A DNA stretch of 64,000 nucleotides from an uncultured Acidobacteriia bacterium (GTDB lineage Bacteria; Acidobacteriota; Terriglobia; Bryobacterales; Bryobacteraceae): assembly GCA_903875575.1 (NCBI GenBank), contig CAIQWJ010000093.1, positions 1 to 64,000 of the forward strand. The letters are read 5' to 3'. The notes below the pieces were generated by a model. The model did no database searches, had not been told where the DNA came from, and saw nothing but the letters and a program-made list of their open reading frames with translations. Positions within the stretch are counted from its first letter, which is position 1. Every line of letters starts with the position of its first letter. The position numbers were made by a program, and so were the translations under genes. Of the stretch, positions 42,077 through 46,869 are shown piece by piece.

Positions 42077-42934
42077 TTATGAGCAGCAACCCGGCGCGCA
42101 GCATGGGGCTTTCACCTGCGGCTTCACAGCGCGGATGAAAGCGCTCATGAATTTGCCATCCACCTGCGGGGCAATGGCGTCGACGTCAATGCCCTGCCCT
42201 GACAGAAAGGTGCGGGCGTCTTCGATGCGATAAACGCGGGTTGGCTCCACGCCGATGTTTTCGAAACCCGCGACGGCGAGCTTGTTCCGGTATTCCGTTT
42301 CTTCGAGCGCACCAGCCACGCAGCCGACCCACATCAGAACGCTCTCGCGGATCTCCGGCAGCATAGGGCCTGTCGTGACGACGTCGGACACGGCCAGGCG
42401 GCCTCCCGGCTTGAGGACGCGGAAGGCTTCGCGCAGGACGCGGTCTTTATCGGCTGAGAGATTGATGACGCAGTTGGAAATGATGACATCGAAACTGTTG
42501 TCTGGCAGCGGAATGTGTTCGATTTCGCCCTTGAGGAATTCGACGTTGGTGGCACCCGCCGACTGTTTGTTCCGCTCGGCGAGGGCGAGCATTTCGTCCG
42601 TCATGTCGAGGCCGTAGGCTTTGCCGGTCGGCCCGACGCGTCTGGCGGAGAGCAACACGTCGATGCCGCCGCCGGAACCGAGATCGAGCACGGTTTCGCC
42701 AGGAAGGAGTTCCGCGAGGGCGGTCGGATTGCCGCAGCCGAGAGAGGCGAGGACTGCTTCTTCCGGTAGCTGTGTGGTCTGGCCGTCGGTGTAGAGATTG
42801 CTGGTAATGGGGTCGCAGCAGTTGTCGAGCGCGGCGGCCGCGCCGCAGCAGGAACTGCCGCCGGACTTCACGCGCAGGGCCGCTGCGCCGTACTTCTCGC
42901 GAACAACGTCTCTGATACCTGTGCCCTCGTTCAT
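42077..42934 (-). CDS. arsM: Arsenite S-adenosylmethionine methyltransferase ArsM
   Basis: 285 aa. SAM motif I is [20 protein letters not shown]. As-binding cysteines are expected in [15 protein letters not shown] near 28-40, SLGCGNP near 65, SNCVINL near 157 and WVGCVAGA near 207, which matches the ArsM layout. It methylates As(III), giving volatile or excreted methylarsenicals. The C terminus ([10 protein letters not shown]) has extra cysteines typical of these proteins. It lies 4 bp after arsR copy 2. Confidence 0.93.
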
Positions 42935-42938
42935 GGAG

Positions 42939-43292
42939 TTACCTCGTCTTGCAAGTCTGAAAGAGAACTTTGACTGGAATTGCCTTGTTGCGGGTGCAGC
43001 ACTCAGCGTAGAGGAATTCGAGCATTTCCTGGAGGACGGCGGTGTTCGCGCGATAGCGCAGGAAGGTGCCTTCGCGGGAGACTTCGATAAGGCCTTCGTT
43101 GCGAAGTTTGTCGAGGTGGTGGGAAAGATTGGAGCCTGAGAGTTCGAGTTCGGTCTGGATCTCGCCGACTACGAGACCTTCCGGGTGAGCGGAGAGCAGG
43201 AGGCGGAGGATGCGGAGGCGTTGTTCGCTGCCGATGGCGGCGAACATGTCGGCGAAGCGCAGGGTCTGTTCGGCGCTCTTGAGCGTTTCCAT
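42939..43292 (-). CDS. arsR: ArsR/SmtB-family transcriptional repressor 2
   Basis: 117 aa winged-helix repressor: FAAIGSEQRLRILRLLLSAH, recognition helix LELSGSNLSHHLDKLRNEGL, and EGTFLRYRAN as the wing. The metalloid site is at the C terminus instead (Cys 98-99 in AECCTRNK, and Cys 114), like Acidithiobacillus ArsR, so it differs in type from copy 1. It is followed by arsM and is presumably autoregulated through the inverted repeat over its start. Confidence 0.9.
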   Translation of the reverse strand: METLKSAEQTLRFADMFAAIGSEQRLRILRLLLSAHPEGLVVGEIQTELELSGSNLSHHLDKLRNEGLIEVSREGTFLRYRANTAVLQEMLEFLYAECCTRNKAIPVKVLFQTCKTR

Positions 43293-43319
43293 ATTTCAAT
43301 GATAATAGAAATATAGAAA
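43286..43319. promoter_or_regulatory. Inverted repeat over the arsR-2 start, probable operator
   Basis: TTTCCATATTTC (43286-43297) and GAAATATAGAAA (43308-43319) are complementary except at one position, with a 10-nt spacer. The minus-strand TATTAT in this region (complement of 43302-43307) lies 9 nt before the ATG. The repeat covers the start codon and -10, as expected for an autoregulated repressor. Confidence 0.55.
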
Positions 43320-43345
43320 CGTGTCAAGGGCGTCGATGAGGAGAG

Positions 43346-44569
43346 TTACTTCACTTCGAAATGGATGGTCTCCGCAAACGCGCGGTTTGTCGCTTGTTCT
43401 GAGACGCTTACGTAGCCATCGTACAAGCCTGGAGAAAGGGTAAAATTCGAGCGATGCACGCCAACAGCCGCCTGAACCCGGTCCTGCCCCCCCACAACAG
43501 TCTGGCCCGAAGAACCGGAATTCGTACGGGTTCTAATTTGCTCGTTAATTACGACAGTACCGGAAAGAAAATCGAGCGGCACTGAAAACACGGAGAAGCT
43601 TCCGGCCAAATAGATCTGCACTGAAGCGTGCCTGCCCGGCAGTGCCCCAATGGTAGGGAGGGCCTCGAGAATACCTCGACCGACACGAAGCTGTCTAAGT
43701 ATCTCCCGATCGGTCTGCTGCTCAGGGTCGAGGCCCGCCGTCCCTTCAAACGTCGCTGTCGCCGTCGGATAGTTGATACGCATGGGACCGTTCCCAACGG
43801 GAAACTCCAACTCCACGCTGCTGTGGAAGTTTTCGAGGTAGTTATAGCGCCAGATCTGCGAGGGGTTCTGTGCGTTGGAACTGCGGTCGTCAATCTGGTC
43901 CGGCGGTCCATAGGCGATGTAGGTCCAGGGCATGGGGCCAGCGGCGGAACCAAATCTCGCCTGGGCCTGCGCAACCCGCCGGTTGTACTCTTCGGGTGCC
44001 ATGCCCGCTGGCATGAGCGACGCTCCACCGCGACCGCCGCCTGCGGGAGTAGTTGTGGGTGTGACCGCGCTCACGTCAATGGGATATATCGCGACGTTTG
44101 CCGTGGTCGCGGCGGTGATCGCGCTCTTCAATGCTTCCTGGTTTGCATCACCTGAAGGCATGCCGGCAGCGAAATACATCAGCGCTTTCTTCTGCGGGAA
44201 GGCACCCAACATTTTTGCCGCAGTCACGATGACAGCTACTTTGGCGTCCGGAGAATGGACGGGAATAGTGACTCCTGCCGCGTTTATCTTTTGGATGACG
44301 CTCTCCAGCGTAGCCGTATTGTCGGTAAAATCCTGGAGGAGCTCCACGGGTCCGGCCCCCGCTAACAGCACGCTCACACGATCTCCAGGCTGGAGCCTGT
44401 CGTGGACGTAACTGACGCCAGCTTGTCGGCTTCGAGCCTGCTCGTCCGCATTCATACCGCCGAAATCGAACAGGAACGCCACCAGGCGCCCGTTCTGCTG
44501 CTGCGCTGTCGCTGTTGGCGCAACAGGCGCCTCGGGTGTTGCCGCAGCGGGCCGCTGTCCCGTCGTCAC
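43346..44569 (-). CDS. TIGR03436-like vWFA / GWxTD-like domain protein; downstream part of an M56 frame
   Basis: A 407-aa frame from GTG 44569 with no ribosome binding site and no signal peptide. The vWFA-like part begins FLFDFGGMNADEQARSRQAG and continues with a MIDAS-like DFGGM and VSYVHDRLQPGDRVSVLLAG, typical of the acidobacterial VWFA family. A second part has a segment (YGPPDQIDD...QIWRYNYLE) recalling GWxTD proteins, and beta-rich ends. The frame is the same as the M56 gene upstream, broken only by TAG at 44585-44587, so the part after TAG is a 412-codon extension. Read through, it would place this domain outside the membrane as the sensor end of the protease. Otherwise it is an unexported orphan or a nonsense-mutated gene. 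Confidence 0.7.
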   Translation of the reverse strand: MTTGQRPAAATPEAPVAPTATAQQQNGRLVAFLFDFGGMNADEQARSRQAGVSYVHDRLQPGDRVSVLLAGAGPVELLQDFTDNTATLESVIQKINAAGVTIPVHSPDAKVAVIVTAAKMLGAFPQKKALMYFAAGMPSGDANQEALKSAITAATTANVAIYPIDVSAVTPTTTPAGGGRGGASLMPAGMAPEEYNRRVAQAQARFGSAAGPMPWTYIAYGPPDQIDDRSSNAQNPSQIWRYNYLENFHSSVELEFPVGNGPMRINYPTATATFEGTAGLDPEQQTDREILRQLRVGRGILEALPTIGALPGRHASVQIYLAGSFSVFSVPLDFLSGTVVINEQIRTRTNSGSSGQTVVGGQDRVQAAVGVHRSNFTLSPGLYDGYVSVSEQATNRAFAETIHFEVK

Positions 44570-44584
44570 CGGCGTGCGCGACGC

Positions 44585-45592
44585 CTACGCTAACTGCATC
44601 AGTGGCTGGATGAGTGCCGCGGGAGCCTGCGCCAGAATCGCGGGGGAATGACCTACGCCGAGCACCACGCCCACCGCCAGCGGCCCCGCAACCGCCACCA
44701 ATCCGGCAAATGCGAGAAGCGCCCTCTTCGCAATACTCAAACCCCGCACTCCGCGATTCAGCATGATGGCCTCGATTCTCTTCCTGATATCCGACCCTGT
44801 GACACCCGCCACGCACACCAGCGGCGATTCCATGTACAGTTTGCAGACGCCAAGGATCGCGTCGGCATAAACCCTCGGCTGGTTGCCGAGCCGCAGTACT
44901 TCTTCATCGCAGGCACGCTCCCGTTCGGCTAGCAAGCGTGCGCCGACCCACCAAACCAACGGATGGAACCAGAACACAGCTTCGACGATCATGTGGATCG
45001 ATGCCAGCAGGTTGTCACGCCGACGCACATGGCACATCTCATGCGCGAGCACGGTTTCCAGTTGCTGCGGTGTCAGGCTGTCCGCGATCCCCTCGGGTAG
45101 CAAGAGCACCGGACGCAGCCAGCCGACTACACCTGGTTCCAACAGGCCCGGCGCAACCCTGGTTTCGACACCTTCCAGTTGCAGGGGCACCGAGGCGTGG
45201 ACGGCAGCCCGGATACGCAGCCAGTTGCGCAGGCGCAGGGACGAGATTGCGATGAGCCCGGCGAGCCACAGGGCAACTATCGCGATCGGCCGCCAGTCGA
45301 CTGGGACGGGCGGCGGAGTACCAACAGACGGTTGGCTGGTGAACGGCCCGCTGACGTATTCGACGGCGAAGGCAACAGCTGGGGTGGCTATTTTCCGTGC
45401 CACGGGAGTCCATGCGAAGTAACTTCCCACTTTCATTAGCACCGCTAGCGGGATGAGGAATTTCATGGAGGCGCTGAACCACAGCCAGTGGCGAACCTGT
45501 GCGCGGTTACTGCGAAACAGAAGCGTCAACAGCGCCGCTGCGACGGCAAACCATGTGGACTGCCATAGATGAGTTGTGATTTCGCTGATCAT
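44585..45592 (-). CDS. M56-family (BlaR1/MecR1-like) membrane metalloprotease
   Basis: 335 aa to TAG 44585. N-terminal helices (WFAVAAALLTLLF, SMKFLIPLAVLMKVGSYFA, PIAIVALWLAGLIAIS) precede the M56 domain with the zinc motif HEMCH and, after FWFHPLVWWVGARLLAERE, the RACDEEV segment. A last helix near 300-320 (ALLAFAGLVAVAGPLAVGVV) would put any following domain in the periplasm. In BlaR1 that position holds the beta-lactam sensor. The protease normally cleaves the BlaI-type repressor. Here the next domain is a vWFA part behind an in-frame TAG. Distance to the TIGR03435 gene is 18 bp. Confidence 0.88.
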   Translation of the reverse strand: MISEITTHLWQSTWFAVAAALLTLLFRSNRAQVRHWLWFSASMKFLIPLAVLMKVGSYFAWTPVARKIATPAVAFAVEYVSGPFTSQPSVGTPPPVPVDWRPIAIVALWLAGLIAISSLRLRNWLRIRAAVHASVPLQLEGVETRVAPGLLEPGVVGWLRPVLLLPEGIADSLTPQQLETVLAHEMCHVRRRDNLLASIHMIVEAVFWFHPLVWWVGARLLAERERACDEEVLRLGNQPRVYADAILGVCKLYMESPLVCVAGVTGSDIRKRIEAIMLNRGVRGLSIAKRALLAFAGLVAVAGPLAVGVVLGVGHSPAILAQAPAALIQPLMQLA

Positions 45593-45610
45593 TTCGGGTC
45601 ATCCTTCGAT

Positions 45611-46372
45611 TCAGTTTTCAGTCGGAACCTTGTCCGCGCGGTCTACAACCAGGACGTCAACCGCTCGCTTGCGGCTCTGCAATTCGAGGCCGCATTGTGT
45701 TTTCAGGACGCTGTATAACGAGTCGCCAGGGGGCGAATCACTGCCGGAAATATTGTCCGCCGACTGGAAGGTCACGTCAATGTCATAGCTGCCCGGCAAG
45801 TCTGTTTCATCGAACACGGGTCGCTTCAGGTAGAGCGTCAGGAAATCGGTCAAAGCCGACAGAGATGCCGACCTGCCAACAGCCCGCAGGGTATCGCCAA
45901 TGGGAAACACGGCGATCTTGCCGGCAGGTGCGGCCGCCAATGCCGCGGGTTTCAGTTTCGGCCCGCTTTTAGAAACTACGAGACCTAACGCAGAAATCTC
46001 TTTGTTTTCCCGATGCGACACCATGTGGAAGCGCTCGTTGAGAAGGCCGCCGAGCATCGTCCGAAACTGGCTCTCATCCGTCCCGGGGGGCAGGGTGGCC
46101 GCGATGTCGTAGAGTTCGTCGGTCATCCACGCGGGCGTGACGAGTTGGAATTGCCGCAGGTCCCAGGCACGCATGAGAAGGGTAGTCAGGTTCACGCTGA
46201 CATAACTGATCCGGCCTGGAGAGCTTGTGCCCGGCCCGCCCGTCATTTGCATGCGCGCCTTTTGGGGACCGGTCACCTTCCTGACCGAGGCTGTTTCGAA
46301 GGCGGTTTGAGCGAAGGCGGCAGAGGCGAGGATTGCCGATATCGCGACGACCGATGCTGCCCGCCTGTTCAT
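45611..46372 (-). CDS. TIGR03435 (DUF3738) soil-associated protein in BlaI operon
   Basis: 253 aa with signal peptide (SVVAISAILASAAFAQ), intact. The opening FETASVRK, the middle PAWMTDELYDIAATLPPGTD and the ending VLVVDRADKVPTEN match the family. It overlaps the blaI stop by ATGA. In acidobacteria this family is often found near M56/BlaI genes, sometimes fused to M56 (from memory); it could be a periplasmic ligand or partner of the sensor, which is inference. Confidence 0.9.
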   Translation of the reverse strand: MNRRAASVVAISAILASAAFAQTAFETASVRKVTGPQKARMQMTGGPGTSSPGRISYVSVNLTTLLMRAWDLRQFQLVTPAWMTDELYDIAATLPPGTDESQFRTMLGGLLNERFHMVSHRENKEISALGLVVSKSGPKLKPAALAAAPAGKIAVFPIGDTLRAVGRSASLSALTDFLTLYLKRPVFDETDLPGSYDIDVTFQSADNISGSDSPPGDSLYSVLKTQCGLELQSRKRAVDVLVVDRADKVPTEN

Positions 46373-46749
46373 TTTGCCTTCCCCTTATCCAGCTTCTGGA
46401 TAGTCTTTTCGAGTTCACGCACGTCGGCGAGCGTGAGTTTCCCTGCTTCGGCCAGTTGCGCCATCATCGGCTGCGCTTTGCCGCCGAAGAAGCTGAGGAT
46501 TTCGTCGAGCAGTTTGTGTCGCGTGACGTCGCGGGCGACCAGCGGCTCGAAGATATCGGCATTGCCGATCTTGCGCACGCGGCGGACTGTCTGCTTGCCT
46601 TCGAGCCGGTAGACGGTCGTCTGGATGGTGGTGTAAGCGGGGCGAGGTTCGGGGAAGGCCTCCTGAATTTCGCGGATAGAGGCTTTTCCGTGGGCCCACA
46701 GGGCCTCCAGGATTTGAAGTTCCAGCTTGCTGAGTTTGGTCGGGCGCAT
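46369..46749 (-). CDS. blaI: BlaI/MecI/CopY-type repressor
   Basis: 126 aa winged-helix repressor. LSKLELQILEALWAHGKASI and AYTTIQTTVYRLEGKQTVRR are the BlaI wing and recognition region; the C-terminal helices dimerise. BlaI is inactivated by M56 protease cleavage, and such a protease is encoded two genes downstream in the same operon. The likely scissile region lies between the DNA-binding and dimerisation parts. Two operator-like sites lie 18-54 bp upstream of the start codon. Confidence 0.93.
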   Translation of the reverse strand: MRPTKLSKLELQILEALWAHGKASIREIQEAFPEPRPAYTTIQTTVYRLEGKQTVRRVRKIGNADIFEPLVARDVTRHKLLDEILSFFGGKAQPMMAQLAEAGKLTLADVRELEKTIQKLDKGKAK

Positions 46750-46766
46750 CTCTTTCTCACTGCCTC

Positions 46767-46803
46767 CTACTATTTCATGACTGATACTACTATGAAATAG
46801 TAG
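46767..46803. promoter_or_regulatory. Tandem BlaI-like operator upstream of blaI
   Basis: CTACTAT-GAA-ATAGTAG at 46787-46803 is a perfect 7+7 inverted repeat with the 3-bp centre of BlaI/MecI operators. A second, degenerate copy (CTACTAT-TTC-ATGACTG) lies at 46767-46783, 20 bp away. As a whole, CTACTATTTCAT (46767-46778) is also the exact complement of ATGAAATAGTAG (46792-46803). Binding to both would block the blaI promoter. Confidence 0.75.
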
Positions 46804-46869
46804 AACGCTGCAAGAGGATTTTTTTTGGGGGGCTTCGATTACGGAGCGGGAGGGCGCCGAGGTTACCGT

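What the first reader, a model, noticed from the sequence alone, without database searches (positions are those of the whole stretch)
43346..46803. BlaI-controlled sensor operon in which an M56 protease and a vWFA/GWxTD-like domain share one frame divided by a single TAG
Sequence: blaI, TIGR03435 and M56 overlap or nearly abut. The M56 frame ends in TAG (44585-44587), and the same frame continues for 412 codons with a vWFA-like protein that has no signal peptide and no ribosome binding site. The last M56 helix would place that domain in the periplasm, where BlaR1 has its beta-lactam sensor. Known: BlaI is cleaved by BlaR1-type M56 proteases. Inference: this may be a one-protein sensor-protease with a new ligand domain, regulated by a readthrough stop, or it was one before a nonsense mutation.
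Basis: partly seen in the sequence, partly recalled or inferred. Interest (0 to 1): 0.75.

Follow-up and report, generated by a model that had tools for sequence, protein, structure and literature searches.

The report
Sensor-protease gene split by stop codon
A soil acidobacterium carries a one-protein membrane sensor and protease, built like the penicillin sensor BlaR1 but with a different outer domain, and in this genome a single stop codon cuts the gene between protease and sensor, most likely a recent loss-of-function change and not a regulated read-through.

Summary
On the minus strand, blaI, a TIGR03435 protein and an M56 protease are followed, in the M56 frame and after one TAG (44587-44585), by 412 open codons encoding a vWFA domain (TIGR03436) and a GWxTD-like region. 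All 4 full-length relatives found (three same-genus genomes, one other genus) encode M56-vWFA-GWxTD as one unbroken protein of 716-775 aa behind a blaI; a matching operator precedes blaI in all five operons. So the fused receptor is real and the stop was seen only in this genome. Regulated read-through is not supported: the stop is not conserved, release factor 1 is present, and none of 41 tRNA genes found reads UAG. The downstream domain shows no faster evolution in this lineage, so the stop is recent, or a strain variant or base error that reads would settle. The wider picture is more interesting than the stop. The other 13 M56 proteins of this genome are long, and 12 carry a Pfam domain after the protease (TonB_C, SLBB/Poly_export, TPR, DUF3738, GWxTD, CarboxypepD_reg). 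BlaR1-like sensor-proteases look modular here; vWFA-GWxTD is one ectodomain for which my paper searches found no description. Ligand and targets are unknown.

The parts
46784..46813 (-). candidate promoter of blaI: TTGCAG (46813-46808), 18 nt, TAGTAT (46789-46784), read by eye; operator 1 fills the spacer
   Evidence: sequence; similar layout in the other four operons
46787..46803 (-). operator 1, perfect palindrome CTACTATttcATAGTAG, upstream of blaI
   Evidence: 0 mismatches; conserved in 5 of 5 operons as CTACTA-N5-TAGTAG
46767..46783 (-). operator 2, imperfect copy (cagtCATGAAATAGTAG), next to the blaI ribosome-binding site
   Evidence: sequence; TAGTAG half-site conserved in the five operons
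46369..46749 (-). blaI, BlaI/MecI-type repressor, 126 aa
   Evidence: PF03965 E 8e-23; 88-91% identical to the BlaI of G009, G001, G005
45611..46372 (-). stand-alone TIGR03435/DUF3738 protein with a signal-peptide-like N terminus (by eye), 253 aa
   Evidence: TIGR03435 E 1e-57, PF12543 E 4e-41; N terminus printed
44585..45592 (-). M56 metalloprotease part of the receptor, 335 aa, ends in TAG
   Evidence: PF05569 E 9e-30; aligned to S. aureus BlaR1 8exs; HEMCH and ERACD motifs 41 residues apart
44585..44587 (-). in-frame TAG in the variable linker, 13 residues after the AQ that follows the last hydrophobic helix; absent from 4 of 4 full-length relatives
43346..44584 (-). remainder of the same frame: linker, vWFA domain without an intact DxSxS motif, GWxTD-like region; 412 aa
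   Evidence: TIGR03436 and TIGR04514; von Willebrand A fold by Foldseek
42939..43292 (-). arsR-type regulator gene; neighbour, not part of the receptor
   Evidence: NF033788 E 8e-20; also beside the receptor in G009 and G005, not found in 13.0 kb around it in G001 or 13.4 kb in G079
42077..42934 (-). arsM-like methyltransferase gene; neighbour (specific name recalled, Pfam gives generic methyltransferases)
   Evidence: PF13847 E 7e-37; distribution as for arsR

Best explanation
The locus is a BlaI/BlaR1-like operon that probably regulates itself. Its receptor was encoded by one gene: a membrane M56 zinc protease whose last helix is followed by a periplasmic vWFA-GWxTD ectodomain. By analogy with BlaR1 (inferred), a signal bound outside activates the protease inside, which cleaves BlaI and opens the promoter in front of blaI. 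In this genome a TAG just after the last membrane helix ends translation. The cell would make an M56 protease without its ectodomain, and the vWFA-GWxTD part would not be made, or only in traces. The stop is recent and private to this lineage or strain (or a base error), so the receptor is most likely a fresh pseudogene or sensor-less remnant. Shown: architecture, stop absent from the relatives, operator conservation, no detectable acceleration after the stop. Inferred: topology, BlaI cleavage, ligand binding, loss of sensing.
For: Full-length relatives with no stop: G009 775 aa, G001 745 aa, G005 745 aa, G079 716 aa. In the order, 5 of 257 genomes show a full-length match to the downstream part, and only the window's copy is split from M56. 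Other unbroken fusions: M56-GWxTD in G232 and G104, M56-vWFA in G084, G070, G118, G175, G156. Of 123 M56 hits in 16 of 19 genus genomes, three have frames under 380 aa: the window (337) and two that run off contig ends (G007:C625 334, G009:C331 222). Window tip branch relative to the mean of the other four: 1.26 before, 0.96 after the stop; post/pre median 0.79, 5-95% 0.57-1.31, 100 bootstraps. Zinc motifs, and a sequence match to BlaR1 across them. Operator layout in 5 of 5 operons. No clear RBS at the nearest start after the TAG.
Against: No reads could be inspected, so a base error or mixed strain population is not excluded. Relatives are distant (51-56% identity to G009 over the whole frame), synonymous sites are near saturation, and only five sequences enter the branch test. 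The window copy breaks 18 of 81 post-stop columns invariant in the other four; the others break 10 of 73, 10 of 73, 21 of 84 and 31 of 94, so weak relaxation could hide. The single operator hit genome-wide is fewer than the reversed-pattern control gives (3 per strand); only its conserved place argues for function. The RBS test is weak (arsR and Ku also score low). Topology, signal, BlaI cleavage and targets were not established.
Confidence: 0.83

Rival explanations
1. The TAG is a base error or a minority strain variant in this draft assembly, and the population encodes the intact fusion. (A sub-case of the best explanation, counted inside its 0.83.)
For: Contig of a 110-contig draft genome; the downstream frame is intact and not accelerated; all 4 relatives are intact.
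Against: None of the other 13 M56 matches in the same genome shows an internal stop, though a further paralogue is broken (L232). Single-base errors in consensus contigs are uncommon (recalled).
Confidence: 0.22
2. Programmed or regulated read-through of the TAG makes a small amount of the full receptor beside the sensor-less protease.
For: Both halves stay in frame and look constrained.
Against: TAG absent from 4 of 4 full-length relatives; linker unconserved; release factor 1 present; no CUA anticodon among 41 tRNAs.
Confidence: 0.03
3. A real gene split: the two halves are translated separately, the second by re-initiation after the TAG, and work as two polypeptides.
For: A GTG begins 15 nt after the TAG, and an ATG at codon 44 has a fair anti-SD energy of -5.6.
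Against: The GTG has no clear ribosome-binding site and the ATG lies inside the vWFA domain; no signal peptide, so the domain would stay in the cytoplasm, away from its place in the fused relatives (by hydropathy); no full-length relative with this layout found.
Confidence: 0.05
4. M56 and vWFA-GWxTD were always separate genes that merely abut in one frame.
For: Separate TIGR03436-type proteins are common in these genomes.
Against: Four of 4 full-length relatives are uninterrupted fusions behind a related blaI.
Confidence: 0.02

Closest known systems
BlaR1/MecR1 with BlaI/MecI (S. aureus); PMC9834060 and PMC7593790, passages seen
   Same: M56 protease with HEXXH and EXXXD motifs in the same spacing, N-terminal membrane part, C-terminal domain after the last helix (in the relatives), adjacent blaI, palindrome in front of blaI
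   Different: ectodomain is vWFA-GWxTD, not a class D beta-lactamase-like sensor; no beta-lactamase among the ten window proteins scanned with Pfam; in this genome the gene is cut by a stop
M56-DUF3738 (TIGR03435) fusion proteins of the same genus
   Same: among the closest M56 relatives seen, also behind blaI (L225, L227-L230, L236)
   Different: ectodomain is DUF3738; here DUF3738 is a separate protein in the operon
TIGR03436 acidobacterial VWFA proteins and TIGR04514/PF20094 GWxTD proteins
   Same: vWFA and GWxTD regions match these models
   Different: mostly found apart from M56 in the loci searched (125 ORFs with vWFA only, loci partly duplicated); here attached to a membrane protease

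Membership tests
BlaR1/MecR1-type receptor | M56 zinc-protease domain with HEXXH and EXXXD motifs | tested here: met
   PF05569 E 9e-30; HEMCH and, 41 residues on, ERACD, as H201EXXH and E242XXXD in BlaR1; alignment to 8exs over both motifs
BlaR1/MecR1-type receptor | adjacent BlaI/MecI-type repressor gene with a palindromic candidate operator | tested here: met
   PF03965 E 8e-23; palindrome in 5 of 5 operons; binding not tested
BlaR1/MecR1-type receptor | C-terminal extracellular domain in the same chain | tested here: not met
   not met in the window (TAG); a C-terminal domain in the same chain in 4 of 4 full-length relatives
BlaR1/MecR1-type receptor | four transmembrane helices, sensor outside | tested here: inconclusive
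   hydropathy gives three clear segments in G009, two clear and three weaker ones in the window's M56; full-length model too poor, pLDDT 47.8
BlaR1/MecR1-type receptor | beta-lactam-binding sensor domain | tested here: not met
   vWFA and GWxTD instead; NF000326 80.0 bits against a cut-off of 400
BlaR1/MecR1-type receptor | cleaves BlaI on signal | not testable with these tools
   needs a bench test
TIGR03436 acidobact_VWFA | score over the curated cut-off (81.25) | tested here: not met
   window 74.6; G009 84.9, G001 83.7, G079 82.8 over it, G005 67.2 under it
TIGR04514 GWxTD_dom | score over the curated cut-off (28) | tested here: not met
   window 24.3; G009 32.1 and G001 30.9 over it; G005 and G079 no match at E 0.01
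programmed stop-codon read-through | stop codon conserved in orthologues | tested here: not met
   0 of 4 full-length relatives have it
programmed stop-codon read-through | a decoding tRNA or loss of RF1 | tested here: not met
   RF1 present; 0 of 41 tRNAs with a CUA anticodon; draft genome, so an unassembled gene is possible

The most novel reading that the evidence does not exclude
Bryobacteraceae run a large parallel set of one-step BlaI/M56 receptors in which one membrane protease module is combined with interchangeable periplasmic sensors (vWFA-GWxTD, GWxTD, SLBB/Poly_export, TonB_C, TPR, DUF3738, CarboxypepD_reg). The vWFA-GWxTD type senses an envelope signal that has nothing to do with beta-lactams, and the window is a natural sensor-less allele of it.
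Probability: 0.5. Interest if true: 0.6.

Novelty: new variant of a known kind. Interest (0 to 1): 0.42.

Why it matters
BlaR1 is studied as an antibiotic sensor. An acidobacterial genome with 14 M56 matches, 12 of the 13 unsplit ones with a recognisable non-penicillin C-terminal domain, suggests that direct repressor cleavage by a membrane sensor-protease could be a general signalling scheme in this group, with sensors swapped like those of histidine kinases. The vWFA-GWxTD receptor gives a concrete, testable example with a conserved candidate operator. The stop codon itself matters little unless reads and proteomics show that it is fixed and read through.

Tried and rejected
Read-through: rejected on non-conservation, RF1 and tRNAs. 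Always separate genes: rejected on 4 of 4 fused relatives. Re-initiation: no clear RBS at the nearest start, but the test is weak. Long-standing pseudogene: no extra stop in 412 codons and no acceleration. Codon dN/dS: synonymous sites near saturation, so only descriptive. Arsenic link: arsR and the arsM-like gene lie beside the receptor in the window, G009 and G005 but were not found in 13.0 kb of G001 or 13.4 kb of G079 (3 of 5), and a possible ArsR inverted repeat precedes arsR, so not taken as function. Genome-wide operator search: one site, control 3 per strand, so no regulon. The full-length structure model is too poor to use (pLDDT 47.8). The model of the window's downstream part (pLDDT 64.5, pTM 0.46) served only for the fold: Foldseek gives 108 matches at E up to 0.001, best 6e-6, and many of the 50 listed are labelled von Willebrand A or integrin I domains, with TM-scores by query length of only 0.2-0.3 because half the model aligns. 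No solved structure by sequence for this part at E 0.1. A class-wide search (399 genomes drawn evenly, E 1e-40) matched 1 of 399, the window's own; the four relatives would have matched and evidently were not drawn, so it says only that the family is rare. The genome-contig scan (best 80 of 162 kept) returned the same four contigs under public names (contig lengths agree), so it is not independent support. An in-frame TGA reported for the BlaI of G007 turned out to be the ordinary end of that gene. Paper searches (PMC library only; search listings, nine; 20 of 25 hits listed) showed no title on M56-vWFA or M56-GWxTD receptors. In PMC9834060, PMC7593790 and PMC12578637 I saw passages only; the last was a chance match.
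Full report
WHAT IS THERE. On the minus strand the window holds blaI (46749-46369), a secreted-looking TIGR03435 protein (46372-45611), an M56 protease (45592-44585, TAG at 44587-44585) and, in the same frame, 412 more codons ending at 43346. The upstream half is PF05569, E 9e-30. The downstream half matches TIGR03436 acidobact_VWFA (E 9e-21) and TIGR04514 GWxTD (E 3e-5), both somewhat under their curated cut-offs. The frame is open far beyond chance (about 1e-6). The downstream half has no signal peptide by hydropathy, and its nearest start codon has no clear ribosome-binding site; that last test is weak, since arsR and Ku next door score low too and an ATG at codon 44 scores -5.6.

THE TWO HALVES ARE ONE PROTEIN IN RELATIVES. 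Searching the downstream half in 19 genomes of the genus and in 200 genomes of the family gave four full-length relatives: G009, G001, G005 (same genus) and G079 (another genus). In each the open frame also contains the M56 domain: 775, 745, 745 and 716 aa, no stop inside. A search of 257 genomes of the order with an alignment showed full-length matches in the same five genomes and no others; only the best seven candidates per genome were scored and the weaker tail of the list is cut. Public contigs of the same lengths bear the names uncultured Acidobacteriia, Bryobacterales and Bryobacteraceae. Partial versions exist as unbroken fusions among the loci held: M56-GWxTD in G232 (5' end cut by its contig) and G104, M56-vWFA in G084, G070 (with TIGR03435), G118, G175 and G156 (with TonB_C). 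Of 123 M56 hits in 16 of 19 genus genomes, three frames are shorter than 380 aa; two run off contig ends, the third is the window.

THE STOP. It lies in a linker, 13 residues after the AQ that follows the last hydrophobic helix. In this column one relative has V, one Q, and two a gap, so the place is free to vary and no coding signal is conserved. RF1 is present. All 41 tRNA matches of the genome were read by ARAGORN and none has a CUA anticodon; the genome is a draft. If the stop were old, the silent half should evolve faster. That is not seen: the window's tip branch relative to the mean of the others is 1.26 before and 0.96 after the stop, bootstrap ratio 0.79 with a 5-95% range of 0.57-1.31. 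Against this, only five distant sequences were used, and the window copy breaks 18 of 81 post-stop columns invariant in the others (others: 10 of 73, 10 of 73, 21 of 84, 31 of 94; before the stop 21 of 166, the highest of the five). The most economical reading is a recent, private nonsense change, or a base error or strain variant that only reads can tell apart.

HOW IT MOST LIKELY WORKS. The M56 part keeps the BlaR1 zinc motifs in the same spacing (HEMCH, and 41 residues on ERACD; BlaR1 H201EXXH and E242XXXD, passage seen) and aligns to BlaR1 8exs across them. A blaI heads the operon in all five; in G001 an M56-TIGR03435 gene, and in the window a stand-alone TIGR03435 gene, lies between it and the receptor. 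BlaI is 88-91% identical among the genus relatives, while the window's M56 part is 66% and its downstream part 49% identical to G009: the repressor is kept, the outer domain diverges fast, as expected of a sensor. In front of blaI all five have CTACTA-N5-TAGTAG followed by TATCAG or GATCAG and a second TAGTAG half-site. By eye the first palindrome fills the spacer between TTG-type and TAGTAT/TAGGAT hexamers, a usual place for a repressor site. In the window's genome no other site occurs within two mismatches, though the reversed control pattern gives three per strand, so self-regulation is likely but no regulon is shown. By analogy with BlaR1, an outer signal would activate the protease, which cleaves BlaI. 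The outer domain has a von Willebrand A fold (Foldseek; model pLDDT 64.5). Its first metal motif DxSxS (motif recalled) is kept in none of the five sequences. A beta-rich GWxTD-like part follows. That suggests protein or polymer binding rather than metal-dependent adhesion; this is inference. With the stop, the cell would make a protease without ectodomain.

THE WIDER SETTING. The window's genome has 14 M56 matches over the cut-off. The 13 others have frames of 590-1000 aa. I scanned all 13 with Pfam, and 12 have a domain beyond the protease: TonB_C in five (L238, L239, L240, two in L241; L240 also CarboxypepD_reg), DUF3738 in two (L236, L237), Poly_export with SLBB in two (L234), SLBB alone in one (L235), TPR in one (L234) and GWxTD in one (L235). 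One 833-aa protein (L237) shows none. (My notebook entry says four TonB_C; five is what the calls show.) A further paralogue (L232) appears to have lost the protease core and frame but keeps an Lcl_C domain, so such receptors do decay in this lineage. This modular use of a BlaR1-like protease is the part a specialist may find new. Nine searches of the held PMC library showed no paper on it, but most subscription papers are not held, and the domain families themselves are known.

VERDICT. Observation confirmed; fused sensor-protease confirmed in relatives; regulated read-through not supported. The window copy is an ordinary interrupted gene of an interesting, modular receptor kind.

Noticed in passing
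L232 2318-4128 (G000:C22, about 75817-77627): Another BlaI-M56 pair of the same genome is broken: a 94-aa N-terminal piece, then, in another frame, the last helix and an Lcl_C domain; the HEXXH core appears deleted.
   Followed up: partly
L234-L241 (G000 contigs 37, 78, 59, 64, 24, 74, 52): Thirteen long M56 proteins in one genome; 12 with TonB_C, DUF3738, Poly_export-SLBB, SLBB, TPR, GWxTD or CarboxypepD_reg C-terminal domains; in L234, L235, L237 and L241 two or three follow one blaI.
   Followed up: partly
L060 967-2901 (G001): An M56-TIGR03435 gene overlaps the start of the M56-vWFA-GWxTD gene; the window has a stand-alone TIGR03435 gene at that place, perhaps what is left of such a tandem.
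   Followed up: no
window 43289-43320: Inverted repeat ATATTTC...GAAATAT in front of arsR (by eye), a possible ArsR operator; an arsM-like methyltransferase and an SBF-family transporter (ACR3-like by recall) follow.
   Followed up: no
window 42077-46749 against L244 and L245: Neighbouring arsR (89-95%) and arsM-like (86-87%) proteins and BlaI (88-91%) are far better conserved than the receptor between them, so the receptor evolves fast.
   Followed up: partly
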